A program made the position numbers and the translations under genes. From the NCBI GenBank assembly GCA_026196875.1, contig JAPHTP010000052.1, positions 1 through 32,828 of the forward strand: a DNA stretch of 32,828 nucleotides, read 5' to 3'. The notes beneath the pieces were generated by a model, which saw only the letters and a list, made by a program, of their open reading frames with translations, had not been told where the DNA came from and made no database searches. Source of the stretch: Kangiellaceae bacterium (lineage in GTDB: Bacteria; Pseudomonadota; Gammaproteobacteria; Enterobacterales; Kangiellaceae). Below are positions 1 to 32,827 of this stretch, piece after piece. The first letter of the stretch is position 1. Each line of letters opens with the position of its first letter.

Positions 1-121
1 CACCATCGCTTCGCGGTTAAAACCGCTCCTACATAATTCTCTCAACCTGCAGGAGCGACTTCAGTCGCGATAAGCTCTCTCAGTGCCCACCATCATTTCG
101 CGGCTAAAGCCGCTCCTACTA
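1..121. repeat. Composite REP-like palindrome cluster, left copy
   Basis: Three related palindromic units lie in alternating orientation: about 5-33, 50-73 (reversed) and 92-120. Each is a short hairpin of the type GCGGCTAAAGCCGC next to CTCCTAC, which reads on the minus strand as GTAGGAGCGGCTTTAGCCGC. The same three-part order, with similar linkers such as GATAAG and CACCATC, occurs again at 28059-28169. The cluster begins at the stop codon of the large minus-strand sensor gene, so it lies in the 3' untranslated part of that transcript. REP elements of this kind are common in gammaproteobacteria and can stabilise or end transcripts. That role here is inference. Confidence 0.85.
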
Positions 122-3100
122 ATTATGCTCTTTTTGGTAATCCGACGGACTCACCCCATAATGCGCCTTAAAGCACTGACTAAAGTAATTAGCCGTAGTG
201 AAACCTACTTCCAGGGATACTTGAGTAATTTGCTGCCCATTTGCCAACAACTCGGCTGCACGCTGTAATCGATAGAGTCGCAGATAATCTCTTAAAGTTT
301 GATCGAGCAATGCTTTTAATTTGCGTTGAAGTTGGCGTTCACTCATCGCAACAGCCTTTGCTGTCATTTTTAAATCGAGATCCGGTTGTTGGTACGTCTC
401 TTCGACAAATACTTCAAGCCGATTTAAAAATTGCTGGTCCTTCGGCGATAGCTCCGCCAAATCGGATCTTCTTTCCTCTATCGACTTAGCATCCTGATTC
501 GGAGAATGGATTAAATGCCCTAAACGGCGACCTAACATCTGACGAATATTGAGGATATTTTTTGCCCTAATCACCAGCTCTTCACTATCAAATGGTTTAG
601 CTAGATAAGCATCAATATCCGATTTCCAGGCGTCAATCCGGCTTTGATTATCTCCTTTAGCGGTTAGCATAATAATCGGTATATGCGAGGTTCTTTCATC
701 TGCTCTCAAAGTTTGGGCAAGTTCGTAGCCTGATTTATTGGGCATCATCAGATCGGTCACAATAACATCCGGAACCATCTCCAGAGCTATCTCGATTCCT
801 TGCTGACCATCATTGGCAAAACGACATTGGAAATGTGGCGTTAAACATTGACCGATAAACTCCTGCATATCGATACTGTCTTCGACAATAAGCAGCTTGG
901 GCTTGCCATTATCTATTTCAAGATCTTGACTATCAGCTGACTGATCAGCGTTTAATTTATTTTTAGTGTTCTCCCAATTATCAAGGATATCCATTTCTTG
1001 CCGGATATAATCCTCATCCAATTCAAGTTCTTGCTGTGCAGCTGGCGTCTCAACTTGTGGCAGACTAATGGTAAAAGTTGTTCCCTCACCCGCTTGGCTA
1101 GCGACGCTAATCTCACCATTTACCTGCTCAACTAACTCCTTAACCAGCGCCAGGCCTAATCCGGAGCCTTGTATATTTTTATTATGTCGTTGGTTGAGTC
1201 GAACAAAACGCTGAAATAGCATTTCCAGCTCATTTACATCAATGCCAATCCCTGTATCTGAAACGGTTAAAATTATTTTTCCATCAATGTTTTTAAGCGC
1301 CAGATTAACACGACCATTATCGCTATTATATTTAACCGCATTAGTGAGTAGATTAACGATAATTTTCTCAGCCGAATCACTGGTCAGTGCGACAAACAAT
1401 TCGTCTTCAACATCCATAGTAAAGGTTACCTGGTGGCTTACGAATAACGATTCCAGCGACTGACAAATATGCCTTGTCAGCTCACTCATATTTATCACAC
1501 CGTTTTGTTCTTCTTGGTGGTAATCCAAACGGGCAAGTTCTAAAATCTGCTCAACCATTCTTTGCAGTCTTTGTGCATTTCGTTTAACCAACTGCAAATC
1601 ATCACTTTGTTGTTTATTTTCTGAATGACTAATCAGTGATTTCAAAGGGCCTAATATCAAAGTTAGCGGCGTTTTAAATTCGTGAGAAATATTTGCCAGC
1701 AGTTCGTTCTTTTTCTCAAGCAGTTCTTGTACTAACTCTGTACGTTCTGCTTTCATCTTAATCTCGGATAAAGCTTTTTGTTGTGCCGATACTGTTTTAA
1801 TTCGCCGCTGCATAAACCAATATAAGCTAAAAGCGGCAAGCAGACCGACCAACCATTTAAACCAGAGTGTTTGATAGAAAAATGGCATCGCCTCAATGTT
1901 AAGTAAAACTGAGTTTTCCGACCACTCGCCGTGACGATTCGAGCCTTGGATAAGCAATTGGTAGTGACCCGGAGATAAAGACTGGTAATTGATAAAACGT
2001 AACTCTGAGGAAACTGTCTTCCATTGTTCATCAGCCCCCAGCATTTTGTAGCGATATAAGTTCGCTTTTGGTTCGGTATAATCGAGTGATGAAAAGCGAA
2101 TCGAAAAATTAGTCTGGCCTGGTTTTAAACTTAATCCTTGCTCGACTGAATTGACAATGACTTCCTCCCCTTCAATCTTCGCTTCTGTAATAACTAATGG
2201 AGGTTGATACTGCCATGGTTTAAATTTATCGGGGTCAGCAAGTAACATTTGCTGGGTCGACACGTTGATTATTTTTCCATCTCGAGTAATTAGCATATCG
2301 GGCATTTTCGTTTTATCGATATTGCCGTCCGCCGGTAGAAAATGGGCTAGCTCCCGACCATTTGAATCGATATAAAATTCCGTACCGTACCAAAAATTCC
2401 CATTTTTTAGCGGTAGGAGCGTTTTTAATCTTTCCGGCTTCTGAACGACTTCAGAAGCAAATGGTTCAAAAATAAGTTCGTTGTCCTTGACTTCAATTAA
2501 CTTATCGATCCCTGCATTGTGACTTAAATAAATGTTACACCGATTGTCCTTTGTGAGACCTGCAAAGTTGCTACCTCTAACAGTATCCAAGCCATCACCT
2601 TTGCTAAATGGACGTAGCTCAGCTTTGCCCTTTGTCACCACAGCAATCCCTGTTCGGGCCATTAAAAGTAATTGTCCATCACAAGATTCAATGGCTCGAC
2701 TACTGGAACCTTTTTCAATAATCCCCGCAGGATTAACTACCGGTTCAAACTCTAGTGTTTTAATATTTAAACGGTGGTTGCCAGCGGATGATGAAAACCA
2801 TAAGTATTTTTCATCTTGAACGATCAGAACTTTTACATGATCGGCTTTGGTCACTCGGGGCGTTGGCGCTTGAACCATTAACTTTTCTTTTGATTCGGCA
2901 TCGAAACGTAGAATTTTTCCATTAGTGCTGCCAAACCAAAAAGTAGTTGCACTTTCGCGTATAACAGAGCTAATTCGCCCAAAGTCCGGGTCAAGACCTT
3001 CTAAAAAAGCGCTAATACCTCCGTTGGTTAAGTTAAATTTAACCACCTTGTCTCTGGCAATTACCAGCAAATCTTCGTCATTAAGCAAATGCGCATCTAA

Positions 3101-4216
3101 GGTTCCACTTTCAAATAGGCGTTTGGTACTTTCTTTGCTGGCGCTGATCATTCGAAATGCCTTATTAAATGGATTATAAAACTGCAATCCCCTTGGCGTT
3201 GACAACCAGACCAATCCCGACCGCGAAGCCATTAGTTCAAATACTTGATTATTCGACAAACCATGTTCATGCGGTAAATCTGCTTTAATCACATGTTCTA
3301 ATGCGCCTGTGACGGCATTTCTAATTTGAATTCCCTCGGTTCCTGAAATCCAAACTTGATCACCGGACTGAGTGATACCGACATGGGTTTTTCCTTTACC
3401 TTCCTCTTCCATCGGCAGAGCAAAAAACTGTTGCTGTTTATGGTCAATAACAAATACCCCTGCGCTAAAGGTTGTTAACCAAATCCTTTCATCTGCTGCA
3501 ATAAGAATACGTGAAACGACGATATCTTTGAGTTCTTTTTTATACTCGTCACTGCTGACACTATCTGTATAAACTCGGTGAAAACCTTGGGATTCGGGAT
3601 CAAAGTGTGCAACACCATTAGCCGTTGCTAACCATAGTCTATTACTCGAATCAAAAGCTAAATCGAGAATATAATTAGCATAGGGATTTTGCGGCTGTTC
3701 GCTTGAGCGAAAGTTTTGGAAAGATTTTGTGGTAGGGTTAAACTTGCTTACCCCCTTAGCCGTCGCTACCCAAAGCTGAGAAGACTGATCAAAAGCCAGC
3801 CCCATTACATGAGTATCGGCCAGGGAACTTGAATCGCCTTTTTTGGCACTATATTGAGTTGCCTCACCGGTTCGCATGTTGTAATGATATAGGCCTTCAC
3901 TACGAGTCCCTATCCACAAGTGTTCTTTATCTGGCAAAAGCGCCAAAACATGCAGGTTTTCGACTTCGCCGGTGGGTAATTTTAACTTAGTCTTTTTATA
4001 TTCATATCCATCGTAACGGAATAAACCACCACCCGACCCATACCAGATAAAACCTTTATCGTCTTGAGCTATGGCTGCATCGGCAGAAAATGCTCTATCG
4101 TTGTTTGTATTGGCGCGATAGAGGATGGGCGAAAACAGATCCTCATTTATTTCAGCGATGCTCGAAGCGCTTGCGAAATAGAAAAGTAATGTGCAAAGAA
4201 AAGGTGTAAGTCTCAT
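119..4216 (-). CDS. Hybrid two-component system protein (periplasmic propeller sensor, histidine kinase, receiver, AraC output)
   Basis: This is a one-protein signalling system of about 1365 residues. A signal peptide (about 1-22) is followed by a long periplasmic region of two-component-regulator propeller repeats (motifs such as LWIGTRSEGLYHYN and LWLATANGVAHFDP). Then come a Y_Y_Y domain, a single membrane helix (LWFKWLVGLLAAFSLYWFM), a HisKA domain with the phospho-acceptor His near residue 845 (ISHEFKTPLT), and a HATPase domain (DTGIGID, GSGLGLALV). A receiver domain has its acceptor Asp near 1155 (VTDLMMPNKSG), and an AraC helix-turn-helix ends the protein (VGFTTANYFSQCFKAHYGVSP). This architecture is best known from Bacteroidetes, where it senses glycans. 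The ligand cannot be read here. I chose the ATG at 4216 because a promoter 27 bases upstream leaves the in-frame TTG at 4234 almost no leader. The stop codon abuts the REP cluster. Confidence 0.95.
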   Translation of the reverse strand: MRLTPFLCTLLFYFASASSIAEINEDLFSPILYRANTNNDRAFSADAAIAQDDKGFIWYGSGGGLFRYDGYEYKKTKLKLPTGEVENLHVLALLPDKEHLWIGTRSEGLYHYNMRTGEATQYSAKKGDSSSLADTHVMGLAFDQSSQLWVATAKGVSKFNPTTKSFQNFRSSEQPQNPYANYILDLAFDSSNRLWLATANGVAHFDPESQGFHRVYTDSVSSDEYKKELKDIVVSRILIAADERIWLTTFSAGVFVIDHKQQQFFALPMEEEGKGKTHVGITQSGDQVWISGTEGIQIRNAVTGALEHVIKADLPHEHGLSNNQVFELMASRSGLVWLSTPRGLQFYNPFNKAFRMISASKESTKRLFESGTLDAHLLNDEDLLVIARDKVVKFNLTNGGISAFLEGLDPDFGRISSVIRESATTFWFGSTNGKILRFDAESKEKLMVQAPTPRVTKADHVKVLIVQDEKYLWFSSSAGNHRLNIKTLEFEPVVNPAGIIEKGSSSRAIESCDGQLLLMARTGIAVVTKGKAELRPFSKGDGLDTVRGSNFAGLTKDNRCNIYLSHNAGIDKLIEVKDNELIFEPFASEVVQKPERLKTLLPLKNGNFWYGTEFYIDSNGRELAHFLPADGNIDKTKMPDMLITRDGKIINVSTQQMLLADPDKFKPWQYQPPLVITEAKIEGEEVIVNSVEQGLSLKPGQTNFSIRFSSLDYTEPKANLYRYKMLGADEQWKTVSSELRFINYQSLSPGHYQLLIQGSNRHGEWSENSVLLNIEAMPFFYQTLWFKWLVGLLAAFSLYWFMQRRIKTVSAQQKALSEIKMKAERTELVQELLEKKNELLANISHEFKTPLTLILGPLKSLISHSENKQQSDDLQLVKRNAQRLQRMVEQILELARLDYHQEEQNGVINMSELTRHICQSLESLFVSHQVTFTMDVEDELFVALTSDSAEKIIVNLLTNAVKYNSDNGRVNLALKNIDGKIILTVSDTGIGIDVNELEMLFQRFVRLNQRHNKNIQGSGLGLALVKELVEQVNGEISVASQAGEGTTFTISLPQVETPAAQQELELDEDYIRQEMDILDNWENTKNKLNADQSADSQDLEIDNGKPKLLIVEDSIDMQEFIGQCLTPHFQCRFANDGQQGIEIALEMVPDVIVTDLMMPNKSGYELAQTLRADERTSHIPIIMLTAKGDNQSRIDAWKSDIDAYLAKPFDSEELVIRAKNILNIRQMLGRRLGHLIHSPNQDAKSIEERRSDLAELSPKDQQFLNRLEVFVEETYQQPDLDLKMTAKAVAMSERQLQRKLKALLDQTLRDYLRLYRLQRAAELLANGQQITQVSLEVGFTTANYFSQCFKAHYGVSPSDYQKEHN

Positions 4217-4249
4217 CCAGTTGGAGTTAAACAATCAGATTAATTTGCT

Positions 4250-4882: not shown

Positions 4883-5776
4883 TTAATCACTATCATCTTC
4901 CTTATGGAGATCTTTAAACTGAGAGATAAACTTTCCTTTTGGAGTGACATGAATTTTATTCTTAATAATCTTAATCAATCCTGACTCTCGTAAGAAAACA
5001 TGGGAGTCATTTTTTCTGTCATACCTGAGTACTTCAGGATAACCTCGACCTTGCCTTTCGATTTTGTTGAAATGATAAAAAGCTTTGTCTTTAGGGATAA
5101 GACCTGAGTTAATTTCGGCCAGCCACTGTTCCACTGAACGAGAAGAATAGTCTGGGAGATAGACTCGTTTAGAGTGTATATCTTCGTTATCGATTATGTT
5201 GGTTATTAGGACAAATGAGCTACCAATCAAACAATATCCAATTATTGTCCCGATAACTACGTTGTTTTCGAAAAAGTTGATGTACTGATTCAGCATAGTA
5301 AGGCGGTCGGTCGAAATTGAAAAACCAACTTCTATAACTAACAAAATCATAACCGCGATAGAAAACTTTCTAGCAAGTGCCGCTTTTTCTATTTCTTTTA
5401 TTTTCTTTTCGCAGTAACTATAAATAATTGAATTAGATTCAACGATTGCTCGTTCTCTCAAGTGTCCCAATCGAATCCACTCGTGTTTATCATAGTTTTC
5501 GTATCTGTCCCTATAAGGTAGCAGCCTATCAATAACAAACAAAATGCTGGGGACAAAAATCGCATAGAAAACAGAAAAGGAAAAAAAGAAGAAAAGAATA
5601 TGTGGAAGAAAAATGTTATATTCTAGCCAAGCATAGCGCGCTGAAAATATACCTTTTTTAAATTCATATACTAAAAATATATCGGCAAACAGTATCAGGC
5701 TTAAGAAAAAAATTAAGTAGTCAAACTCCATTAAATTCTTATACCATTCAACGTGTTTATTCGTTGGGTGAGACAT
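4883..5776 (-). CDS. Four-helix membrane protein of unknown function
   Basis: I do not recognise this 297-residue protein. It has four predicted membrane helices: residues about 19-39 (YLIFFLSLILFADIFLVYEF), 53-86 (very aromatic, FLPHILFFFFSFSVFYAIFV), 138-158 and 173-195. The soluble C-terminal 100 residues end in a segment (VFLRESGLIKIIKNKIHVTPKGKFISQF) that reads like a small winged-helix unit. A charged stretch between helices 2 and 3 contains DRYENYDKHEWIRLGHLRERAI. The ATG at 5776 has AAGGAA about 8 bases upstream. It sits just upstream of the SMI1/KNR4-like gene on the same strand. AT content is higher and codon use looks more A-rich than in the flanking kinase gene, which may point to separate acquisition; that is inference. 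Confidence 0.7.
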   Translation of the reverse strand: MSHPTNKHVEWYKNLMEFDYLIFFLSLILFADIFLVYEFKKGIFSARYAWLEYNIFLPHILFFFFSFSVFYAIFVPSILFVIDRLLPYRDRYENYDKHEWIRLGHLRERAIVESNSIIYSYCEKKIKEIEKAALARKFSIAVMILLVIEVGFSISTDRLTMLNQYINFFENNVVIGTIIGYCLIGSSFVLITNIIDNEDIHSKRVYLPDYSSRSVEQWLAEINSGLIPKDKAFYHFNKIERQGRGYPEVLRYDRKNDSHVFLRESGLIKIIKNKIHVTPKGKFISQFKDLHKEDDSD

Positions 5777-6066
5777 AGTTACATTCCTTGTAATTTGAAA
5801 AGGCAGCTATCTGTAAGGTACTTAGCGATACTTCCCTATTGATGTTAAGTTATTGAACTTATTAAATAAAATCTGTGCTATTGACGATATACATGACTTC
5901 ATAACATGTCAATCCTTTTCAAATTGTGCTATGTGAGAAATCGATTTCGCTTTGAATGATTAAAATAAATGCAGCTAGTCAAGTTGCGTTTTTAATAATT
6001 TGGCCAGATAACAAACTAAACATTGAACAAGCGCCTTGACCAATTTTCTATTGTGCTGGTCATACT

Positions 6067-6258
6067 TTGCACAAAGACCAGTTAACTCTATATCCTGGAG
6101 AATTAATTGCCACCCGAAACCATTATCTAATTACGCGGCATGACGGCAATTTAGTGCTATATCGTTTTAACAACAGACAGGTTGGTGGGCTACTTTGGAC
6201 AACCGGTACCAACAAGATTAATCAACATCAGGTAATTTTCCAGTTCACTATTCAATAA
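6067..6258 (+). CDS. Small bulb-type lectin-like ORF, possibly a remnant
   Basis: The 63 residues contain the sequence PGELIATRNHYLITRHDGNL followed by VLYR and LLWTTGTN. This resembles one repeat of the bulb-type (B-type) mannose-binding lectin fold, whose signature is a D-G-N-L-V-L-Y strand followed by a W-x-T-G-T turn. A complete domain has about three such repeats, so this is either a very small single-repeat protein or a leftover piece of one. The start is a TTG without a clear Shine-Dalgarno sequence, and the frame is open back to a stop at 6037. It ends 51 bases before the kinase gene on the same strand and could share its transcript. Coding status is uncertain. Confidence 0.4.
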   Translation: MHKDQLTLYPGELIATRNHYLITRHDGNLVLYRFNNRQVGGLLWTTGTNKINQHQVIFQFTIQ

Positions 6259-6309
6259 CACACTATTATTATTAGCAATGGTTTTGAATTCACCAACAAA
6301 GCAGGTTTT

Positions 6310-8913
6310 ATGACTGACCCACTCATTGGCAAAATACTCAACGACGCTTATCAAATTAAGAGCGTGCTCGCCGACGGAGGCATGGGGTTGGTTTATATTG
6401 CCGAGCAGCTCAGTCTTGGTCGCGATGTCGTGCTTAAGGTACTACGCCCCAATTTAGTCGATAATGATTTCGCAGAGCTATTTCTTAGGGAAGCCCGGGT
6501 CAACAGCCAGCTCAATCATCCGAATGTTGTGAGCGTCTTTGATTTTGGTAAAACCGATGACAATATCGTCTTTCTGGCAATGGAATATTTAGACGGACAA
6601 ACCATCGGCGATATTGTCAAAGCACAGGGCGGACTGTCACTCGCCAAATGTCTGTGGGTGATGGAACAGATCTGTAGTAGCGTACATGCTGCCCACAAAA
6701 TGCATATTGTTCACCGTGATATTAAACCCAATAATGTGATGGTCAGTGTAGTTTCCGGCGATACTATGGTCGCCAAGATACTCGACTTTGGCATCAGCAA
6801 GCCACTGGAAGAGCGCGACCTTAAACATACCCGCATGGGTACGGTCATGGGCACTCCCGGCTACATCGCGCCGGAACAGATATCTGGAGAGCAAGATATC
6901 GATATTCGAGCAGATATCTATGCCTTGGGCGCCTTACTCTACTTTATGGTTACCGGACAAGCGCCCTACCGAGGCGGTAGCGGCGAGGTGGTGATGCATA
7001 AACAGCTATCATCTTTACCTACACCACTGGCGCAAAGCCCCCTTAAAGATTCTGACGCGGCAATCCTGCAACAGGTGATCGAAAAAGCCATGCAACTGGA
7101 GCGAGAAGAGCGTTATCAGGATGTTAACAGCTTTTGGACAGACATCACCCAAATAGCCAGCGGCAAAAAAAACGCAAGCTCTCAAGCGACTCCCTCTGCA
7201 GCTACTCGCTATTATTTCATTTATAAAGGTGAGTTAAGTGAGGGCGTCTCGGAGCATGAAGCTAAGCTAGGTTTGCATAAAAGCCTTGGCTACAACACCA
7301 AACAAATCAGCAAACTGTTTAGCGGCAAAAGTATCGTAGTACGTAAAAACGTCAGCTTCGAAGAAGCCAGCAAACTCGCAGAGCAATTTAAGCTGCAAGG
7401 TGCTCTGGGTAAAATTGAAGAGATGCAAGACGCCACCCGGATTGTTACCCGTCCGGGACATGATCCAAACACCCTGCCCTCGGTGAGTCGCTTGGAAGCA
7501 ATCTCCCTTGATGACATTAAAGCCGCTGCGGAAAATGCAGAAAAAGAAAATCAAGCGTTGGAAGTGCAAAACTCTCGCCCTATGCCTGGTGCCCGTGATG
7601 GTCATACCGGCCCCAATGTTACCGCCAGCCAAATCCTTCATGGAAAACAGGCCGTAAAATCAAAAAGTATGCGACGAGGCCTCATGGCATTAATAGGCAT
7701 TGGCGTGATCGCTGCCGGCTTATGGTTTTATCTGCCGTTACGCTATCAATTGCTCGATTTCTATCACTACTCAATACAAGGTAACCCGGTCCCGCGAGGC
7801 GTCCACAGCGACACACTAAACATTGGCATGAGTGCTGCCTTTTCTGGCAGTGCTCGCGAAATCGGCCACTCCATGCGTACCGGTATTAACACCTATTTCC
7901 AGCATATTAATAGCCAGGGTGGAATTCATGGTCGCCAATTAAAATTAATAGAACTGGACGATGGTTACGAACCCGCGAGAGCACTCGATAATATAAATCA
8001 TTTTTTAGACCCGGAAAAAGGTTCATTCGCGTTACTCGGCAATGTCGGTACACCAACCGCAAAAGCCGTTCTACCAACCCTGCTTGATAATCGGACGATT
8101 GTTTTCGGCACTTTCTCCGGTTCGTCAATTTTGCGCAATAATCCACCGGATCGTTATGTGTTTAACTACCGCGCCAGCTATGCTGAAGAAACCGCGGCTT
8201 TAATCAATTACTTTACCAACGAATTAGAAATACCCGCCAACCGCATCGCAGTGTTTTACCAAAACGACAGCTATGGCACCGCAGGATTAACTGGAGTTGA
8301 GACGGCGCTACATAAACAGGGGATATCACATGATGATGTTGTAAAAGCCAGTTACGAACGCAACACCTCACAAGTCAGCAAGGCAGTTGAGTTTTTCTCC
8401 GCCCCCGAGCAAAGTATTGATGCAATTGTAATGGTAAGTACCTATGCAGCCAGCGCTGAGTTTATTAAAGAAATGCGGCAAACAGGTTACACGGGACACT
8501 TTGCCAATGTGTCCTTTGTTGGTTCCATTGCATTAGTAGAACGTTTACAAGAAATTGGTGTATCTGGTGAAGAGGTAATTATTTCGCAAGTTGTTCCCCC
8601 TTTTAATTCATACGCGACGGGCGTCTTGAAATATCGAGAACACCTGAAGGATTATTATCCCGGTGAAAACCCTAATTTTATTTCTTTGGAAGGTTATATT
8701 GTCGCGCAGATTTTCACTGAAGCACTGACTCGGTCCGGTCGCTATTTCGATACAGAAACAATGGTCGAAGCACTGGAAACACTTGAAGATTTTGATTTAG
8801 GCATTGGAACCCCTATCAGTTTTAGCCTCTCCAATCATCAAGGTAGTCACCGGGTGTGGGGAACGAAGATCGATAAGGATGGTGGTTTCGTTTCGGTTGA
8901 GTTGACGGAGTGA
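6310..8913 (+). CDS. Transmembrane Ser/Thr protein kinase fused to a periplasmic ligand-binding domain
   Basis: This is an 867-residue receptor kinase. Residues about 14-285 form a PknB-like kinase with a glycine-rich loop (DGGMGLVY), the ATP-binding Lys at 43, the catalytic HRDIKPNN with Asp 137, DFG at 159-161 and APE at 187-189. All key residues are present, so it should be active. Residues 300-371 form a small separate domain (YKGELSEG, then LFSGKSIVVRK, ending GALGKIEE). A basic stop-transfer segment (KSKSMRR) precedes one membrane helix at about 456-475, which puts the kinase in the cytosol. Residues about 502-867 are a type I periplasmic binding protein of the Peripla_BP_6/branched-chain amino-acid receptor class (LNIGMSAAFSGSAREIGHSM, LIELDDGYEPARAL, ALLGNVGTPTA). 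The likely job is to turn periplasmic ligand binding into Ser/Thr phosphorylation. The ligand is unknown; amino acids are the family norm. Confidence 0.95.
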   Translation: MTDPLIGKILNDAYQIKSVLADGGMGLVYIAEQLSLGRDVVLKVLRPNLVDNDFAELFLREARVNSQLNHPNVVSVFDFGKTDDNIVFLAMEYLDGQTIGDIVKAQGGLSLAKCLWVMEQICSSVHAAHKMHIVHRDIKPNNVMVSVVSGDTMVAKILDFGISKPLEERDLKHTRMGTVMGTPGYIAPEQISGEQDIDIRADIYALGALLYFMVTGQAPYRGGSGEVVMHKQLSSLPTPLAQSPLKDSDAAILQQVIEKAMQLEREERYQDVNSFWTDITQIASGKKNASSQATPSAATRYYFIYKGELSEGVSEHEAKLGLHKSLGYNTKQISKLFSGKSIVVRKNVSFEEASKLAEQFKLQGALGKIEEMQDATRIVTRPGHDPNTLPSVSRLEAISLDDIKAAAENAEKENQALEVQNSRPMPGARDGHTGPNVTASQILHGKQAVKSKSMRRGLMALIGIGVIAAGLWFYLPLRYQLLDFYHYSIQGNPVPRGVHSDTLNIGMSAAFSGSAREIGHSMRTGINTYFQHINSQGGIHGRQLKLIELDDGYEPARALDNINHFLDPEKGSFALLGNVGTPTAKAVLPTLLDNRTIVFGTFSGSSILRNNPPDRYVFNYRASYAEETAALINYFTNELEIPANRIAVFYQNDSYGTAGLTGVETALHKQGISHDDVVKASYERNTSQVSKAVEFFSAPEQSIDAIVMVSTYAASAEFIKEMRQTGYTGHFANVSFVGSIALVERLQEIGVSGEEVIISQVVPPFNSYATGVLKYREHLKDYYPGENPNFISLEGYIVAQIFTEALTRSGRYFDTETMVEALETLEDFDLGIGTPISFSLSNHQGSHRVWGTKIDKDGGFVSVELTE

Positions 8914-8956
8914 TGGGAAAGAGCGTAACGGGGCAAGTTGTGTTTGGAGAAAGTAA

Positions 8957-9274
8957 ATGTTACGACTATCGTTATGGGTTAACTTAAGCTTACTTTTGAT
9001 TGGGTGTGGCTCATTGCCTTATCAAAAACTAGTGGTCGCCTCTTCACCTTACGGTTATGAAGAGAAAGTTATCGATAAATCAACTTTCCTGGTTTCCTAT
9101 CATGGGAAAAAAGGAACACCAACTGATGTTTTTAGAGCTTACCTTGCTAGGCGAGCTACTGAACTTTGTGAAGGAGACTTTAAGATCTCAGAAATATCAG
9201 AAAAAATCTCAGTTGCGTCTCATCGAAAACCTGGAACGCTTCCACTCATCAAAGGTAAGGTTCAATGTTTTTAG
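8957..9274 (+). CDS. Small putative lipoprotein
   Basis: This is a 105-residue protein with a lipoprotein signal: a short hydrophobic N-terminus and the lipobox LLIGC, giving lipidated Cys 17. The mature part (YEEKVIDKSTFLVSYHGKKG, then an AYLARRATELCEGDF helix) resembles small lipoproteins of the type with a Y-x-x-K/R ... F-x-V-x-Y-x-G ... RAxELC pattern. Their function is unknown. GGAGA lies about 7 bases upstream of the ATG. It starts 43 bases after the kinase gene and is probably co-transcribed, so it may be an envelope partner or a target of that receptor. That link rests on position only. Confidence 0.75.
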   Translation: MLRLSLWVNLSLLLIGCGSLPYQKLVVASSPYGYEEKVIDKSTFLVSYHGKKGTPTDVFRAYLARRATELCEGDFKISEISEKISVASHRKPGTLPLIKGKVQCF

Positions 9275-9318
9275 TCGACATAACCGGTTCTGATCGCATT
9301 TTTTATTTTCATTAAAAA

Positions 9319-11046
9319 TTAAGACGAACAGCTATAGTGCGACACACCGCCCGCATTAAAAAACTCTTTAGGTTTTAGGCGGTAATATTTCTCTTCAACT
9401 TCTTTTGATTGCTCGTCATAAGGATAGCTCAGCACTTCTTGAAGTTCTTTAACCAGAGAATAATCGCCCTGCGAGGCTTGTTGGTAAGCTGGGACTATTA
9501 ACCACTCGCGCCATGTATATTTAGGGTTAGCTTGTTTCATTTTTGCAGATACCCCGGATAAATCTTTATCGGAGTTGACAAGCTCGCGCCAATTGTCTAA
9601 CCAAGACTGCCATTGCTCGTCGAGCGCCTGAGAAGTTTTGACGTAAAAACTCTTTTTTAACACTGATACATCGTCGGGTATATGGGATAACTCGCGGAAG
9701 AAAATGGTGTAATCCACCTCAGAACGAGTCATTAGTTCTAGCAGTGTTTTAAATAGCTGTGGGTTAAATTCAGCTAAGCCAAGTTTGGTTGCCCACATCT
9801 TTTGAATTTGATTTTGCATTTCTTCTGCAAAGCCACGACGTACTTGGTCGAACTGCTCTAAAGCTTCTCCATCGTCTTCGGTTTCTTTTGCAGTATCTTT
9901 TGCCAGAAGCGGTCGCACTGCAGTCCAAAACATATGAAAATTCGCTTCCGCTGCGACTGGCTGATTGAAGAATGAAAAGTGCTTACCGCCACCAGTCCAA
10001 GGTTGAAACTCAGTATCAAAAATTTCACAAAAACCAAACGGGCCATAATCAAGCGTAAAACCACCGGCAGCACAGTTGTCGCTATTAAAATTGCCCTGGC
10101 AGTAACCAACCCGAAGCCAATTGGCCACCAATGAAGTAAGGCGCTGACGAAATAGCTTTGCCAACTCAACTAATTGTTCTGCAAAATCTAGTTTTTGATC
10201 AATGTCGTTTTTGTATTCTCTTTCAATCAAGTGTGCAACTATCATATGCAACTCTTCTAATGCTCTTGGATGAGCATTGCTGCGAACGCGACGGGCAAAT
10301 AATTCCAGCTGACCAACGCGCAAAAATGAAGGAGCCACGCGGGTAGAAATAGCCACCGGATTGTCAACCAAAATATCGGGGTCATTGGAGCAGGAACCCT
10401 GGGAATACCAAGGTCGGGTAACGGTTTCAGATTTGGAAACGTACAGTGTTAAAGAGCGCGATGTCGGTACTTTTAAGGCATGCATATATTCTTGAGCTAG
10501 AAACTCTCGCACACTTGAGCGCAAAACCGCTCGCCCGTCAGCACCACGACAATAAGGCGTTTGGCCGCCACCTTTTAACTGCATTTCCCAGCGCTGGCCG
10601 TTGAACACAGCTTCAAATACGGATATTGCTCGGCCATCACCATAACCATTGCCAGTACCAAATGGGCATTGTTGGACGTACTCGGTACCATAAATAGATA
10701 GCGCATAACCTGTCGCCCAGCCGACTTGGCGCATCGGAGCGCGCGCCGCCGAGATATCGCCACTAAATACCAGGCGAAATTCTTCGTTTAGCGCCAGTTC
10801 GTCGCTTAGCCCAAGCTCATTAAAAAAAGTGCTGCTATGGGTTACATATTCTGGTTCTGCAAGCGGCGTTGGTGCCACTGGTACGAAATGGCCAGAAAAC
10901 ACTTGGCGGGCCAGGTGATCATCACCACCGCTTTTGGCATCAGGATCGGCATTTAAGTTATCCATCAGAGAATAGTCAGCCAACCGTACAAACTCATCGA
11001 AAGTTGCCACGTAAGTTTGAGCCGGTGATTTAGATGGGAGTGTCAT
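9319..11046 (-). CDS. selO: SelO/YdiU family protein AMP transferase (pseudokinase)
   Basis: This is a 575-residue member of the SelO (UPF0061) family, which transfers AMP from ATP to Ser, Thr or Tyr of target proteins and is linked to redox stress. Family hallmarks present are [31 protein letters not shown], the [13 protein letters not shown] loop and [17 protein letters not shown], which hold the nucleotide and metal-binding residues. The protein ends in CSS. In selenoprotein members the residue at this position is selenocysteine, and here it is an ordinary Cys. The protein is longer than the roughly 480 residues of the E. coli protein. No strong Shine-Dalgarno sequence precedes the ATG, and a three-copy 16-base tandem repeat lies 31-78 bases upstream of it. 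It converges with the lipoprotein gene. Confidence 0.96.
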
Positions 11047-18494: not shown

Positions 18495-19202
18495 TTATTT
18501 AGATTTTCGCTTATCTCTTACCAGATATTGGTTTCCAGGAGCCTTCTTTAACTCGAATAAGTCAATAGCTTTGAATAGATCACTTAACTTTTTGAATCCA
18601 TAATTTCGAGAATCAAAAGAAGTTTGGTTTGATATATGAGCGCCAATGGGCCCTAACCCAGCCCAGCCTTTGTCATCTTCGTTGGCCTCGATAGCCTGCC
18701 TTAGCAAATTGATCAATTTGGCGTCTCCTTTGAGACTTTTACTCGCAGCCTTTTTTACCTTTTCCCTATCTTCGGGCTCATCCAAATACAGAAACTTCGA
18801 ACACGCATTTACGAATGGCATGGCAGACTTTCTTTCTCCGAAACCTATAACAACCTTTCCTTCCTGTACAGCTCTTGTCGCAAGTGGAGTAAAATCACAA
18901 TCTGAAGAAACCAAACAAATAACATCTATATTTTTGGTATAAAGCACGTCCATGACATCAATAACTAACGCAATATCAGAGGCATTTTTACCTTTAGTTA
19001 AGTCAAATTGTTGAATCGGCTGAATCGCCGACTCCAAGAGAGTGTCCTCCCATGGCTTAATTGCTGGCTTTTTCCAATTTCCGTACGCTCGTCGAATATT
19101 TACTACACCATATTTGGCTAACTCAGATAGTATGGTGTCTATCTTGTTTGCAGGTGCATTATCGGCATCGATAAAAAGTGCAATTTTCTGTTTTTCTTCC
19201 AT
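18495..19202 (-). CDS. NYN-domain ribonuclease-like protein with OST-HTH/LOTUS domain
   Basis: This protein has about 235 residues. Residues 1-145 form a NYN (PIN-like) domain with the acidic metal-binding residues in IALFIDADNAPANKID, NASDIALVIDVMDVLY and CLVSSDCDFTPLATRAVQEG. Residues about 165-232 match an OST-HTH/LOTUS domain (INLLRQAIEANEDDKGWAGL, NYGFKKLSDLFKAIDLFEL). Such NYN-LOTUS proteins (LabA/MARF1-like) are thought to bind and cut RNA; LOTUS domains bind G-rich RNA or helicases. I chose the ATG at 19202 because AAGGA lies 11 bases upstream; an upstream in-frame start adds ten residues without a site. Confidence 0.92.
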   Translation of the reverse strand: MEEKQKIALFIDADNAPANKIDTILSELAKYGVVNIRRAYGNWKKPAIKPWEDTLLESAIQPIQQFDLTKGKNASDIALVIDVMDVLYTKNIDVICLVSSDCDFTPLATRAVQEGKVVIGFGERKSAMPFVNACSKFLYLDEPEDREKVKKAASKSLKGDAKLINLLRQAIEANEDDKGWAGLGPIGAHISNQTSFDSRNYGFKKLSDLFKAIDLFELKKAPGNQYLVRDKRKSK

Positions 19203-19499
19203 TAATCTAGTTTCCTTAAAACTTATTTGCATTTATCGGCCACGGCAAATCTTAAGCCACGGGCTGATTAAATTGTCATTTAATTCTGACTCAGTTGTTT
19301 AGAACAAGTTCTTTTGTCTAAATTAACACATTACTCAACATGTTGCAGACACCAACTATTATCATACAAATGCCAAAGAATTTGCCGATTCGCTGATTTT
19401 AGATTCGATCTTATGATTAAGATAACGTCAAGACTGATAAATAGAAACAAAAGGGGCAGGACTAGCTTCAAGAATTTTATTTACATTTCTTGCACAAGG
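19203..19499. other. Intergenic stretch without a recognisable gene
   Basis: This stretch contains the leader of the NYN gene on its left side and an interrupted palindrome AGAAC-AA-GTTCT near 19302. I see nothing else that supports a gene. Confidence 0.4.
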
Positions 19500-28058: not shown

Positions 28059-28169
28059 GTTGCGTCGACTCAAACCACTCCTACAAAATCTCCGAATATG
28101 TAGGAGTGACTTTAATCACGATAAGACTCACAGCACCCACCATCGCTTCGCGGCTAAAGCCGCTCCTAC
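28059..28169. repeat. Composite REP-like palindrome cluster, right copy
   Basis: Three units are present: a degenerate one (28059-28084), a reversed one (28100-28125, GTAGGAGTGACTTTAATCAC) and a perfect one (28138-28169) whose stem GCGGCT-AA-AGCCGC spans 28150-28163. Order, orientation and linkers match the left cluster at 1-121. The stop codon of the large minus-strand surface protein (28166-28168) is the TAG inside the GTAGGAG of the last unit. Confidence 0.85.
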
Positions 28170-31100
28170 GGGGTTCCTGTTTTATATCGGCGATAACAAC
28201 CGATTAAACCAAGCACCAATATTCCGATACCGAATGACCCACCGCCGGCAGATGAACTTTGTTCTTCTTCAACAGTTTCATCATTGTCGTTGATGGTTAC
28301 AGTTGCGGTTGTACCTCCAGCGATTGTTGTATTAACTGCATTACGCAACTCAACACTAAACGACTCATTATTTTCATCCACACTGTCATCGACAATGCCA
28401 ATCGTCAGGGTTTGACTGGTTTCTCCATCAGCAAAATACAATGTTCCATTAGTCCCGTTAAAGTCTTCACCATTAACAGCCGCACCATCGATAAACGCAT
28501 AATCCACACTAATCTCACCATAGCTACCACTGGTTCTGAGCACCGTCACCATAAGTTCATTGAATGACTCACTAATACTAAAAGCATTACCACTGAATTG
28601 GATGTTGCCACTTGACGGCACAGGATCATTTTCTCCAATGGTAATCATAGCTTCGTTGACACTGCCCAAGCTTGCATCACCGTTTAAATTGGTTAACTGC
28701 AGAGTAAAGTTCTCTTCGCCTTCATATTCACTGTCGTCAAAAATTAAAATCGACACGGTATGGCTGATTTCTCCCTCTAAGAAGGTGAATTGGCTTTCAG
28801 CTATTCGATAATCAATACCGTAAGTCGCTGTGCCACTAACCACTGATAAATCAACAGTCACTTCACCAAAGCTGCCATGGGTTCGAGTAAGAGTGACTGC
28901 CAAGCTACCTTCTGCTTCTCCAATCGAGTAAATCGCACCGCTAAATTGGATCACACCTGCCGGTGGAACAGCATCGTCTTCTGCAATGATGACAGTTGAT
29001 AGCATTTGACTACTGAGCTCAGTGCCAGTTGAATTGACCAATTGCAAAGTAAATGTCTCATTCCCTTCATAGGTTGAATCATCAATCAAACTAACAGTAA
29101 TTGTTTTCGCGGTTTCACCATCGGTAAAGGTCAGCGTTTGATTGACACTTTGATAATCTTCACCCGCGATGGCTGAATCATTTTGTGAAACAACATCCAC
29201 ACTCACTTCGCCAAAGCTTCCACCACTTCGAACAACGGTTACTTCAAATGAATCGTCATTTTCATTTACTTGATAGCTACCATTTTCAATCTGAAGTACG
29301 CCTGATGGTGGCACTGGATCATCGTCTAAGATGGTCACAGTTGAGTTCGATGTACCTAAATTCGCATCACCGGTTAGGTTGGATAAAGCCACTCTGAACG
29401 ACTCATCGAACTCGTATAGCTCATCATTGACCAAGTTAATAGTGGCTGTTTTTTCTATTTCACCATCGGCGAAAGTGAGTGTCTGACTTAGAGCTGTATA
29501 GTCACTAGTTGCAACGGCAGTATCATCCAGGGTCGCTAAAGAAACTGAGACTTCGCTATAGCTACCACCGGTACGAACAACCTTGATAGAAACTTCGCCA
29601 TCATTTTCATCAACCAGTTCCGTATCAAATTCAAATCCGATCTCGCCGGCCGGTGGAACCGCATCATCTTCTTGAATGGTAATCCTTGCTGTCAATAGTG
29701 AACCTAATGAGGATTCACCGACACTTTGTAAATTGCTTAGATTAATTGTGAAAGATTCATCACCTTCATAAGTTGAGTCATCAACGATGTTAACCATAAT
29801 GTTTTGTTCGGTTTCACCATCAGCAAAGGTTAAAGTATCAGCGGCAAATTCGTAATCGTTAGTTGCCGTGGCGGAGCTATCAGAATCTCTACCATCTTGC
29901 ATCGCATAATCGACAGTTAACTCTTGATAATCACCATTAGTTCGAGTGACTTTTACCTCAACACTGAAACCATTTTCTGCAACCAAGTAATCGGTCAACT
30001 CAAAGTTAATATCACCGGAGTAGGGATAAGGTGAGTCATCACTATTATCCCCAATGCCATCACCATCAGAATCTTGCCATTCAGTTTCATCGAGTGGGAA
30101 TGCATCTTCATCGTCTGCAACACCGTCGTTATCATCATCGGTATCCGCATTGTTTCCAATACCATCACCATCGGTATCAACTGATTCGTTTTCATCGAGT
30201 GGAAATGCATCTTCGCTATCAGCAACGCCATCATTATCATCATCAGTGTCTGCGTTATTGCCGATACCATCGCCATCGGTATCTTCCCATTCACTTTCAT
30301 CGTAAGGGAACGCATCGTCGCTGTCTTCAACACCGTCATTATCATCATCCGGATCAGTGGAATCTCCAATACCATCACCGTCCCAATCTGTATCCAAAAT
30401 CTCAACAGATCGAGTTACTGTTGTTGCTGCATTACCGGCCGAGTCACTCACATCGTAACTTAAGAGATAGGAGCCGATGGAAGAAGTGTCTACCGATCCA
30501 CCGATCACAATATCAGCCGAAAGATCGCCATCATTGTTGTCGCTGGCACTCGCGCCCGTTTCAACATAAGGATTGCCGACAGTCATCGATAGAGAAGCAT
30601 CACCATTTAAAGTAATGACCGGCGCAGTTTGATCGGTCACAGTAATGGTTCGGGTCACCGAAATGGCCGCATTGTCTGCCGTATCCACAACATCATAAGT
30701 AAGGGTATAACTACCGACCGTATTAGTATCCACACTACCGCTTACGGTAATCGCGCCACTTAAATCACCATCCACATTATCACTCGCAGTCGCCCCATCA
30801 TCGGAATAACTTGAGCCTTGCGCAATAGTCATCGCCGCCTCGCCGGTTAAAGTAATTACCGGTGCAGTTTGGTCAGTCACAGTAATGGTTCGAACAACTT
30901 CATCAGCTTCATTATCGGCAGCATCTCTGACATTAAATGCTAATTGATAATTACCCAATTGATTGGTGTCTACCAAACCCGTCATGATGGTTTGGGCTGT
31001 GATATCCCCATCAGCGTTATCATTGGCAGTCGCACCTGGGTCAACATAATTGTCGCCGTGAGCAACAGTGATAGCCGCTTCACCATTTAAGCTAATCACC

Positions 31101-32827
31101 GGTGCAGTTTGATCATTGATAGTCACTGTAGCCTGTGCAACCCCGGTATTGCTTGATAAGTCCGTTGCACTAAAGGTGACGGTGGTGACACCTAATGGAA
31201 AGACGGTAGGCGCATTATGGGTCACCGTTAAGTCACCGTCGACCACATCATTGGCGGAAGCACTTGCCAGGAAATTGGCAATAGTGGTATCGGTATCAGG
31301 TGTGCCACCGGCATCAATTGCAGCCACGGTGATATTGGCAGGAACAGTCACGACCGGCGCATCCGTATCTTGCACTGTCACTTGACGGGTGAGTGCAGTC
31401 GCGGCATTGTCGGCACTATCACTCACTCGATAGGTAAGAATATAAATGCCAACCGCGCTGGTATCGACGCTACCGCTAATTTCAACTTGGTCACTGATAT
31501 CGCCATCGACATTGTCAGTAACGGTTGCACCTTGCTCGGTGTAACTATCACCAACCGCTAAGGTGATGGCATTGTCACCGTTTAAGCTCATGACCGGGGC
31601 GGCTTGGTCATTGATGGTGACTGTGGCTTGCGACTGACCGCTATTGCCTGAGCTATCAGTGGCACTAAATGTCACGGTGGTCACGCCGAGTGGGAAAACC
31701 GCCGGTGCATCATGGGTTGGCGCCAAAGCGCCGTCCACATCATCACTCGCGGTTGCCGCCGCTAAGAAAGTTTGAATTTTGCTATCAGTTGCCGGTGTGC
31801 CATCAGCATCTACCGCGGCCACAGTGATACTGGTTGGCGCGGTGACAATTGGTGCAAAGGCATCCTGAACACTCACCGAGCGAGTGACTTCGGCGGCCGC
31901 ATTACCGGCGGTATCAGTGACATTATAGCGTAGGGTGTAAACACCCAAATTGGTGGTATCAACACTGCCACTTTCGGCGATGCTAGCCGTTAAATTCCCA
32001 TCCACATTATCGCTTGCGGTAGCACCGGCATCGGTATAAGTTTCGCCAATATTCACTGTGACCGAAGCATCACCGATTAAACTAATAACAGGTGCAGTCT
32101 GATCGGTAACGGTAATGATTGACTGTACGTTACTGGTATTCCCTGCTGAATCAGTTGCGCTAAAAGTAACGGTGGTTGTACCCAATGGGAAAATACTTGG
32201 CGCATCATCATCGACCGTCGCAATCACTCCATCGTTTGCATCCGAAGCGGTAGCTGAGGCTAAGAATAAAGCAATATTTGAATCTGTTTTGGCTGTGCCA
32301 CCAGCATCGGCAGCTGCGACAGTCAAAGCAGTTGGCGCAGTCACCACAGGCGCGGTTTGGTCGGTAACGATCACTGTTCGAGTGACTTGCACAGCGGCAT
32401 TACCCGCCGCATCAGCAACATTATATGTGACGGTATAACTGCCGACGGTGTTAATATCTACAGGATTTACTGTGACGATAGCGCTTGATATTTCACCATC
32501 GTTATTATCATTAGCCGTCGCACCTTGATCGTTATAACTTGAACCTTGAGCCACAGTAACAGTCGCATCGCCTACTAAGGAAATCACCGGCGCTATTTGA
32601 TCGGTAACAGTGACTGTTCGAGTCACTTCCACGGCGGCATTACCCGCCGCATCGGTCACATTATAAGTCACCGTATAATTGCCGACGGTGCTGGTATCCA
32701 CCGAATTAACGGTCACGATTGAACTAGTGATATCGCCATCATTATTATCGCTGGCCGAGGCTCCAGCATCGGCATAGGTCGAGTCTTGTGCAACCGTGAC
32801 GCTGCTATCGCCAAGCAGTGAAATCAC
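28166..32827 (-). CDS. Giant calcium-binding repeat surface protein, GlyGly-CTERM (5' end beyond window)
   Basis: The C-terminal 1553 residues of a secreted protein run off the right edge. In order: residues 1 to about 810 are Ig-like repeats of two interleaved kinds, DUF5011 type (GDASVTVNIGETYTDAGATA, VTRTVTVTDQTAP) and HYR type (FPLGVTTVTFSATDSSGN). At about 811-934 are thrombospondin type 3 calcium repeats (DTDGDGIGNNADTDDDNDGV). At about 935-1520 are five Calx-beta domains (EDD-x-x-PP at joints, DDSTYEGDESF turns). A GlyGly-CTERM tail follows (SSAGGGSFGIGILVLGLIGC then YRRYK): Gly motif, helix and basic end, which is processed by rhombosortase in type II secretion systems. The likely role is an adhesin or cell-surface scaffold stabilised by calcium. 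The N-terminal functional domain, if any, is not in the window. Confidence 0.95.
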   Translation of the reverse strand: MISLLGDSSVTVAQDSTYADAGASASDNNDGDITSSIVTVNSVDTSTVGNYTVTYNVTDAAGNAAVEVTRTVTVTDQIAPVISLVGDATVTVAQGSSYNDQGATANDNNDGEISSAIVTVNPVDINTVGSYTVTYNVADAAGNAAVQVTRTVIVTDQTAPVVTAPTALTVAAADAGGTAKTDSNIALFLASATASDANDGVIATVDDDAPSIFPLGTTTVTFSATDSAGNTSNVQSIITVTDQTAPVISLIGDASVTVNIGETYTDAGATASDNVDGNLTASIAESGSVDTTNLGVYTLRYNVTDTAGNAAAEVTRSVSVQDAFAPIVTAPTSITVAAVDADGTPATDSKIQTFLAAATASDDVDGALAPTHDAPAVFPLGVTTVTFSATDSSGNSGQSQATVTINDQAAPVMSLNGDNAITLAVGDSYTEQGATVTDNVDGDISDQVEISGSVDTSAVGIYILTYRVSDSADNAATALTRQVTVQDTDAPVVTVPANITVAAIDAGGTPDTDTTIANFLASASANDVVDGDLTVTHNAPTVFPLGVTTVTFSATDLSSNTGVAQATVTINDQTAPVISLNGEAAITVAHGDNYVDPGATANDNADGDITAQTIMTGLVDTNQLGNYQLAFNVRDAADNEADEVVRTITVTDQTAPVITLTGEAAMTIAQGSSYSDDGATASDNVDGDLSGAITVSGSVDTNTVGSYTLTYDVVDTADNAAISVTRTITVTDQTAPVITLNGDASLSMTVGNPYVETGASASDNNDGDLSADIVIGGSVDTSSIGSYLLSYDVSDSAGNAATTVTRSVEILDTDWDGDGIGDSTDPDDDNDGVEDSDDAFPYDESEWEDTDGDGIGNNADTDDDNDGVADSEDAFPLDENESVDTDGDGIGNNADTDDDNDGVADDEDAFPLDETEWQDSDGDGIGDNSDDSPYPYSGDINFELTDYLVAENGFSVEVKVTRTNGDYQELTVDYAMQDGRDSDSSATATNDYEFAADTLTFADGETEQNIMVNIVDDSTYEGDESFTINLSNLQSVGESSLGSLLTARITIQEDDAVPPAGEIGFEFDTELVDENDGEVSIKVVRTGGSYSEVSVSLATLDDTAVATSDYTALSQTLTFADGEIEKTATINLVNDELYEFDESFRVALSNLTGDANLGTSNSTVTILDDDPVPPSGVLQIENGSYQVNENDDSFEVTVVRSGGSFGEVSVDVVSQNDSAIAGEDYQSVNQTLTFTDGETAKTITVSLIDDSTYEGNETFTLQLVNSTGTELSSQMLSTVIIAEDDAVPPAGVIQFSGAIYSIGEAEGSLAVTLTRTHGSFGEVTVDLSVVSGTATYGIDYRIAESQFTFLEGEISHTVSILIFDDSEYEGEENFTLQLTNLNGDASLGSVNEAMITIGENDPVPSSGNIQFSGNAFSISESFNELMVTVLRTSGSYGEISVDYAFIDGAAVNGEDFNGTNGTLYFADGETSQTLTIGIVDDSVDENNESFSVELRNAVNTTIAGGTTATVTINDNDETVEEEQSSSAGGGSFGIGILVLGLIGCYRRYKTGTP
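30040..30395. repeat. 105-base tandem repeat encoding thrombospondin type 3 units
   Basis: About three units repeat with a 105-base period (for example, matching GGTATCCGCATTG near 30140 and AGTGTCTGCGTTATTG near 30245), encoding 35-residue acidic units with DxDxDG calcium loops. The bases are well conserved between copies, so recent duplication or gene conversion is likely. Confidence 0.75.
30400..32827. repeat. About 240-base repeats encoding Ig-like domains
   Basis: Successive DUF5011-type units repeat at about 240 bases. The phrase GTTTGATCGGTCACAGTAAT near 30628 returns near 30869 and in variants at later joints. HYR-type units of similar length alternate with them. The array continues past the right edge. 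Confidence 0.75.

What the first reader, a model, noticed from the sequence alone, without database searches (positions are those of the whole stretch)
6310..8913. Receptor Ser/Thr kinase whose sensor is a periplasmic amino-acid-type binding protein
One polypeptide joins an apparently active PknB-like kinase (K43, D137, DFG 159-161), a small linker domain, one membrane helix with basic residues on the cytosolic side, and a full type I binding protein of the Peripla_BP_6 class. Binding proteins normally feed ABC importers or histidine kinases; here the fold would drive Ser/Thr phosphorylation directly. No importer genes are adjacent, so the domain appears to be purely a sensor. Neighbouring genes encode a lectin-like fragment and a lipoprotein, possible accessory or target proteins.
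Basis: partly seen in the sequence, partly recalled or inferred. Interest (0 to 1): 0.8.

Follow-up and report, generated by a model that had tools for sequence, protein, structure and literature searches.

The report
Binding-protein sensor fused to protein kinase
This gene encodes a bacterial receptor that joins a Ser/Thr protein kinase inside the cell to a small-molecule binding protein outside the membrane, and related binding proteins are often encoded next to chemotaxis or two-component receptors, so it is probably a small-molecule sensor wired directly to protein phosphorylation.

Summary
ORF 6310-8913(+), 867 aa, is Pkinase (14-269, E 1.5e-44), a small folded domain (300-372), a linker, one membrane helix running into a stalk (456-489) and Peripla_BP_6 (502-858, E 1.2e-55). 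Catalytic residues are invariant in 18 of 18; the binding domain folds confidently (pLDDT 95.4). That domain belongs to a family whose other members look like signalling proteins: of the 64 loci without a kinase fusion, 24 lie beside a chemoreceptor or histidine-kinase-type gene, 1 near LivH/LivM, and 36 have no partner that I found. The LivJ Glu226 position is Ser in 89 of 89 rows, so 'amino-acid-type' is not supported; nor are accessory roles for neighbour genes. Best reading: a single-pass receptor Ser/Thr kinase gated by a signalling-type binding protein; ligand and targets unknown. New variant of a known kind: such control exists in trans (GlnH-GlnX-PknG), and Pkinase fusions of another binding-protein class are tabulated in print.

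The parts
6310..8913 (+). whole ORF, receptor Ser/Thr kinase with C-terminal type I binding protein, 867 aa
   Evidence: orthologue L002, 864 aa, 78% identical
6349..7116 (+). Pkinase domain (residues 14-269), PknB-like; K43, E61, HRD 135-137, N142, DFG 159-161 intact
   Evidence: 18 of 18 invariant; best PDB sequence match PknB 1mru, E 5.4e-50
7207..7425 (+). small folded domain (residues 300-372) without a Pfam name; a related module lies in a separate 192-aa ORF of the same genome (G000:C155)
   Evidence: model; Pfam (only a sub-cut-off FtsX match); own-genome match E 9.1e-6, 27% identical
7429..7674 (+). poorly conserved cytosolic linker (374-455) with a predicted helix at 400-419
   Evidence: 374-384 and 417-455 pLDDT under 50; pN 0.341 against the orthologue
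7675..7776 (+). single membrane helix continuing as a periplasmic stalk (residues 456-489)
   Evidence: KD19 2.06, K/R 5 before and 1 after; one unbroken helix in the model
7813..8883 (+). Peripla_BP_6 type I binding protein, predicted periplasmic sensor (residues 502-858)

Best explanation
It is a single-pass receptor Ser/Thr kinase. The C-terminal Peripla_BP_6 domain, held outside the membrane on a helix, binds a small molecule and closes; the change (or a change in dimer arrangement) passes through helix 456-489 and the linker to the cytosolic PknB-like kinase, which phosphorylates itself on the activation loop and then its targets. The binding domain belongs to a family used mainly for signalling: relatives are separate proteins encoded beside chemoreceptors and histidine kinases, and fused domains of Ser/Thr kinases. 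Shown by computation: architecture, catalytic-residue conservation, topology signal, fold, family membership, neighbourhoods. Inferred: ligand binding, closure, direction of regulation, dimerisation, targets.
For: Both domains far above cut-off and found in 18 of 18 fusions. Catalytic set invariant. One strong membrane segment in the linker of 18 of 18, with more K/R before than after it in 16 and equal numbers in 2 (L010, L018). Models and fold match. In 16 of the 80 best loci the kinase lies upstream in the same ORF. Neighbours of the family: an MCP beside 15 and a histidine-kinase-type gene beside 9 of the 64 loci without a kinase fusion; LivH and LivM near 1. Of 6 plasmid homologues opened, 4 have an MCP next to the gene, 3 annotated and 1 read from its translation. 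One set of conserved residues across output types. Kinase-domain and binding-domain trees share the groups {window, L002, L010}, {L012, L014, L015}, {L011, L016} and {L033, L035, L036, L043}.
Against: No ligand, activity or target is known. Of the 64 loci without a kinase fusion, 36 have no signalling partner that I found, and 1 (L021) has LivH and LivM within 6 kb. Full-length pTM is 0.55, so domain placement is undetermined. TM plus stalk is one of the least conserved parts between the orthologues (50% identical). Two fusion kinases (L017, L019) fall outside the kinase clade. The 80 loci are the best matches to this query, so 16 of 80 overstates the share of kinase fusions. Rare: 2 of 61 relatives, 2 of 7 of the genus, and 1 of 370 class genomes (own one; at most two candidates scored per genome) carry it; 0 of 1172 plasmid records with a match cover 80% of the query.
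Confidence: 0.7

Rival explanations
1. The binding domain does not sense a free ligand by itself but docks another periplasmic protein; ligand binding is vestigial.
For: Binding proteins are known to act on receptors by docking (PMC9602780, passages). The ligand is unknown.
Against: R609, R621, E627, Q651, D653, R684, S735, Q760 and E794 are conserved at 1.00 of the non-gap rows among 89 family rows, though which of them line the cleft is inference. No neighbour is shared across the fusion loci compared, except a common neighbourhood in L012, L014 and L015 and histidine-kinase homologues at varying distance in four loci (14 of the 16 fusion loci, the window and L091).
Confidence: 0.16
2. It still serves an ABC importer encoded elsewhere, and the kinase reports on or regulates uptake.
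For: The genome has 14 other Peripla_BP_6 matches. L021 has LivH, LivM and LivG matches within 6 kb, and L040 has LivG (ABC ATPase) matches next to the gene on the other strand. The Ruegeria homologue L006 has xylose importer genes upstream, with their own XylF.
Against: The domain is tethered to the membrane through a kinase; LivH and LivM were found near 1 of 80 loci (single E. coli references, E 1e-8); no importer family is among the 25 of 53 families shown for 62 flanking ORFs of otherwise unclassified loci.
Confidence: 0.09
3. A chance or recent fusion without function.
For: Patchy: 2 of 61 relatives have the fusion.
Against: Same architecture in 18 sequences of several phyla with the catalytic residues kept; synonymous sites saturated while pN is 0.085 (kinase) and 0.114 (binding domain) between the two orthologues.
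Confidence: 0.03

Closest known systems
GlnH-GlnX-PknG of mycobacteria (PMC6069109; abstract and passages seen)
   Same: A solute-binding protein outside the cell is proposed to control a Ser/Thr kinase in response to a small molecule.
   Different: Three separate proteins, with GlnX as the membrane part; GlnH binds Asp, Glu and Asn. Here sensor, membrane helix and kinase are one chain and the sensor is Peripla_BP_6.
SBP_bac_3-Pkinase genes in siderophore gene clusters (PMC13293324; one table passage seen)
   Same: A solute-binding domain and a Pkinase domain in one gene: 5 of 55 SBP_bac_3 genes.
   Different: Another binding-protein class. In the same table 2 of 14 Peripla_BP_6 genes have a second domain, and it is DAO, not Pkinase.
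Sensor domains of signal receptors that match binding-protein Pfam models (PMC9602780; passages seen)
   Same: The paper states that many domains recognised by these Pfam signatures are sensor domains of receptors such as sensor kinases.
   Different: The passages name sensor kinases and transcriptional regulators; for Ser/Thr kinases they cite only the PknG work (refs 20, 21).
PASTA receptor kinases (PknB, StkP; topology recalled)
   Same: N-terminal cytosolic kinase, membrane helix, C-terminal outside sensor; kinase domain closest to PknB.
   Different: The sensor is a type I binding protein; NF033483 gives 276.3 bits against cut-off 450.
TorT-TorS pairs (recalled, except the TorS model match)
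   Same: Type I binding protein feeding a receptor; the Legionella partner kinase L074 matches TorS TIGR02956 over residues 11-846 (310.8 bits).
   Different: In trans, histidine kinase output; below the model's cut-off of 676.5; no PDB sequence match for the sensor region of L074 or of the MCP of L059.
4kv7, possible Leu/Ile/Val-binding protein of Rhodopirellula baltica
   Same: Closest solved relative of the sensor: E 3.1e-69, TM 0.91.
   Different: Solved as a binding protein alone; the one search for its code found no paper about it.

Membership tests
Hanks-type (PknB-like) Ser/Thr kinase | Pkinase fold and catalytic residues (Lys, alpha-C Glu, HRD, DFG) | tested here: met
Hanks-type (PknB-like) Ser/Thr kinase | Ser/Thr phosphorylation activity | not testable with these tools
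   needs an in vitro kinase assay
PASTA kinase (Stk1/PknB family, NF033483) | PASTA repeats outside; model cut-off 450 | tested here: not met
   276.3 bits over residues 6-295 only; no PASTA match in Pfam
Peripla_BP_6 type I binding protein | Pfam match above cut-off and two-lobe type I fold | tested here: met
LivJ/LivK-type importer binding protein | Neighbouring LivHMGF importer | tested here: not met
   no Pfam-named importer gene among the ORFs next to the gene; LivH and LivM near 1 of 80 family loci
LivJ/LivK-type importer binding protein | LivJ ligand residues S79, T102, Y202, E226 (recalled) | tested here: not met
   these fall on T581, G604, T711 (conserved Y712 next to it) and S735; Ser in 89 of 89 rows at the E226 position
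Binding-protein family shared with MCP- and HK-adjacent proteins (grouping made here) | Clade with, and same conserved residues as, MCP- and HK-adjacent members | tested here: met
   sister groups (SH-aLRT 99 and 96) inside a group of 68 rows (98); 13 of 15 MCP rows and 6 of 7 HK rows are in the sister group; conserved residues

The most novel reading that the evidence does not exclude
One family of type I binding proteins, not named in the papers that I found, acts as an interchangeable sensor for one conserved ligand across four outputs: chemotaxis (beside MCPs), two-component signalling (beside histidine kinases, one of them TorS-like), DUF4388 proteins (fused, Myxococcota) and Ser/Thr phosphorylation (fused, as here). 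The shared conserved residues predict one widespread signal molecule for all of them.
Probability: 0.38. Interest if true: 0.68.

Novelty: new variant of a known kind. Interest (0 to 1): 0.5.

Why it matters
The stimuli of many bacterial Ser/Thr receptor kinases are unknown; [quoted passage not shown] Here the sensor is predicted to be a well-folded binding protein with stand-alone homologues beside chemoreceptors, so its ligand can be sought by ordinary binding screens and would give a defined signal for a Ser/Thr kinase and perhaps for several chemotaxis and two-component systems at once.

Tried and rejected
Accessory neighbours: the upstream 'lectin' stretch (6061-6258) and the downstream lipoprotein were tested with Pfam and NCBIfam and against the same-genus orthologue's 19-kb locus, where only the fusion gene and two ORFs inside it matched; a role was rejected. 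Minus-strand ORF clusters lie over the fusion gene and were read as shadow ORFs.

Promoters and terminators: the scan of 5700-9400 found no more than shuffles (6 against mean 7.0; 3 against mean 3.9).

dN/dS: synonymous sites saturated, so only pN is given. Kinase tree: 18 fusions against 8 other rows (5 from own-genome loci, of which two are one protein, and 3 from L036 and L050); 8 of 13 own-genome kinase loci offered gave no row, and the L050 row has a branch of length 10, so the control set is thin. One origin of all fusions is neither shown nor rejected (p-AU 0.25 kinase; 0.296 binding domain).

PDB sequence search with the sensor regions of two partner receptors: no match. Literature on 4kv7 and 3lop: the three papers listed concern other things. 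Literature searches: listings only; I opened PMC3355149, PMC6069109, PMC9602780 and PMC13293324 with term searches and saw abstracts or passages, no whole text. An NCBI product name for kinase/binding-protein fusions in actinomycetes is recalled, and one phrase search for it found no paper; actinomycete genomes were not searched.

Full report
Observation. The ORF at 6310-8913 (+) is complete: 867 aa, ATG start. Pfam finds Pkinase at 14-269 (E 1.5e-44) and Peripla_BP_6 at 502-858 (E 1.2e-55), both far above cut-off. Of 14 Pkinase matches and 15 Peripla_BP_6 matches in the own genome, this is the only ORF in both lists. The kinase is nearest to PknB among solved sequences (1mru, E 5.4e-50).

Anatomy. 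AlphaFold2 of the full chain (24 sequences, mean pLDDT 85.4, pTM 0.55) shows the kinase, a compact small domain at 300-372, a low-confidence linker, one unbroken helix 456-489 and the binding protein. The binding domain alone (45 sequences) gives pLDDT 95.4 and pTM 0.93; best PDB matches are 4kv7 (TM 0.91) and 3lop (TM 0.85). The first part of the long helix is the one stretch of this protein above KD19 1.6, with five K/R before and one after, which by the positive-inside rule (recalled) puts the kinase inside and the binding protein outside. The small domain has no Pfam match above cut-off; a related module, 27% identical, lies in a 192-aa ORF of the same genome. Read by eye, it is clear in L002, L010, L011, L013 and L016, altered in L012, L014 and L015, and not recognisable in the other nine fusions; a call meant to align it failed.

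Distribution. A search with the whole protein in 61 relatives at E 1e-60 gave 3 of 61: own genome, one same-genus genome with the full fusion, and one same-order genome with a separate binding protein; that is 2 of 7 genomes of the genus. In 370 class genomes at E 1e-110 only the own genome matched (1 of 370; at most two candidates scored per genome). On plasmids, 0 of 1172 records with a match cover 80% of the query. In 16 of 80 the match lies in one ORF with an upstream kinase: L010-L020, L022, L033, L035, L036 and L043, titled Teredinibacter, Hahella, other gammaproteobacteria, Phycisphaerales, Chloroflexi, Myxococcaceae, Acidobacteriota, Thermoanaerobaculia and Blastocatellia, many of them MAGs. 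With the window and L002 this makes 18. All 18 match both Pfam families and keep the catalytic residues. All 18 have a strong membrane segment in the linker (KD19 1.71-2.81), with more K/R before than after in 16 and equal numbers in 2 (L010, L018); four (L012, L014, L015, L033) have a further stretch just above 1.6 elsewhere, at most 1.69 among those printed. Because the 80 loci are ranked by similarity to this query, the share of kinase fusions is overstated.

The sensor's family. Homologues on plasmids are annotated 'ABC transporter substrate-binding protein' in 39 of the 40 rows listed. Of six opened, three have an annotated methyl-accepting chemotaxis gene next to them (L006, L008, L009), a fourth (L005, Halomonas, unannotated) has an ORF about 45 bases downstream that reads as an MCP, and two (L004, L007) have neither. 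Against this, L006 also has xylose importer genes upstream, with their own XylF. Among the 80 loci, a search with reference proteins gave an MCP beside 15, a histidine kinase beside 7 (one at 255 bases), and LivH plus LivM within 6 kb at 1, L021; LivG alone, a general ABC ATPase, also matched near L040 and L017. Pfam of further neighbours added HATPase_c genes beside L060 (with Hpt) and L079. So 24 of the 64 loci without a kinase fusion have a signalling gene beside them, 3 are DUF4388-type fusions, 1 has LivH and LivM, and 36 have no partner that I found. Of 39 loci left unclassified after, 35 entered the neighbour list and 4 were skipped (L048, L064, L065, L088); 62 flanking ORFs gave no importer family among the 25 of 53 families shown. 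Several contigs end near the gene. Five partners were scanned: L059 and L052 are HAMP-MCPsignal, L087 MCPsignal, L074 and L054 HisKA-HATPase-receiver; in L059, L052 and L074 about 380 residues precede HAMP. L074 matches the TorS model over residues 11-846, below cut-off. Of the DUF4388 group, L034 matches above cut-off and L041 below it; L037 groups with L041 on the tree but was not scanned.

Trees. On a tree of 91 binding domains with LivJ/LivK as outgroup, the 18 kinase fusions, the three DUF4388-type proteins and 19 separate proteins, mostly of Bradyrhizobium and Acetobacteraceae, form one group (SH-aLRT 99), sister to a group (96) with 13 of 15 MCP rows and 6 of 7 HK rows. The kinase label needs 2 changes (shuffled mean 16.6); one clade is not rejected (p-AU 0.296). 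On the kinase-domain tree 16 of 18 fusion kinases form one clade (98) and repeat sub-groups of the binding-domain tree; L017 and L019 lie outside on long branches, and one clade is not rejected (p-AU 0.25). Kinase and sensor seem mostly to have been inherited together; kinase replacement in two lineages is possible.

Pocket. Aligned with LivJ, the recalled ligand residues S79, T102 and E226 fall on T581, G604 and S735, and Y202 on T711, next to the conserved Y712. S735 is Ser in 89 of 89 family rows; R609, R621, E627, Q651, D653, R684, Q760 and E794 are printed at 1.00 of non-gap rows, whatever the neighbour or fusion partner. This speaks against the standard LivJ pocket and for one ligand class, but which residues line the cleft is inference, since no coordinates were available.

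Mechanism. The most likely chain is ligand binding outside, lobe closure, movement or dimer rearrangement through helix 456-489, and activation-loop autophosphorylation of an RD-type kinase with conserved T174. Only the anatomy is shown; each dynamic step is inferred from receptor kinases and binding-protein receptors in general.

Comparison with the known. Control of a Ser/Thr kinase by a binding protein is described in trans: GlnH-GlnX-PknG (PMC6069109, abstract and passages). A 2022 survey cites only PknG work for Ser/Thr kinases and notes that many domains matching binding-protein Pfam models are sensor domains of receptors (PMC9602780, passages). A 2026 paper tabulates a Pkinase domain in 5 of 55 SBP_bac_3 genes (PMC13293324, passage). 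A Peripla_BP_6 sensor in one chain with a Ser/Thr kinase was not seen in my searches, which cover open-licence PMC papers. I therefore call it a new variant of a known kind.

Noticed in passing
L050:3216-9686; L048:2-1573: In Magnetococcales the family binding protein lies between an upstream CHASE2-Pkinase gene and a downstream MCP gene (L050); L048 also has a kinase ORF upstream, cut by the contig end. Possibly one sensor for two outputs.
   Followed up: partly
L033:7459-9756: A histidine kinase gene starts 325 bases after a kinase-binding-protein fusion in a Thermoanaerobaculia MAG.
   Followed up: no
L026, L027, L030, L032: Bradyrhizobium loci with two family binding-protein genes in tandem, 52-279 bases apart. 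The proteins have an N-terminal extension of about 150 residues or more that was not scanned; that of L040 has no Pfam match.
   Followed up: partly
window 7207-7425; G000:C155:36130-36351: Small unnamed domain (residues 300-372) between kinase and membrane helix, related to part of a separate 192-aa ORF of the same genome.
   Followed up: partly
L011, L016, L020, L033, L035, L036, L043: Seven fusions begin with a cysteine-rich, zinc-ribbon-like stretch before the kinase; the window protein does not (read by eye).
   Followed up: no
window 119-4234 (-): Hybrid two-component regulator: propeller repeats, Y_Y_Y, HisKA, HATPase, receiver and AraC-type HTH in one protein.
   Followed up: no
window 18495-19232 (-): NYN domain with an OST-HTH/LOTUS domain.
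   Followed up: no
window 9319-11046 (-): SelO-like protein of 575 aa, below the cut-offs of the three NCBIfam SelO models that it matches (289.3 against 431 at best).
   Followed up: no
window 28166-32827 (-): Large protein with Ig-like, HYR and Calx-beta repeats that reaches the end of the window, which is also the end of the contig.
   Followed up: no
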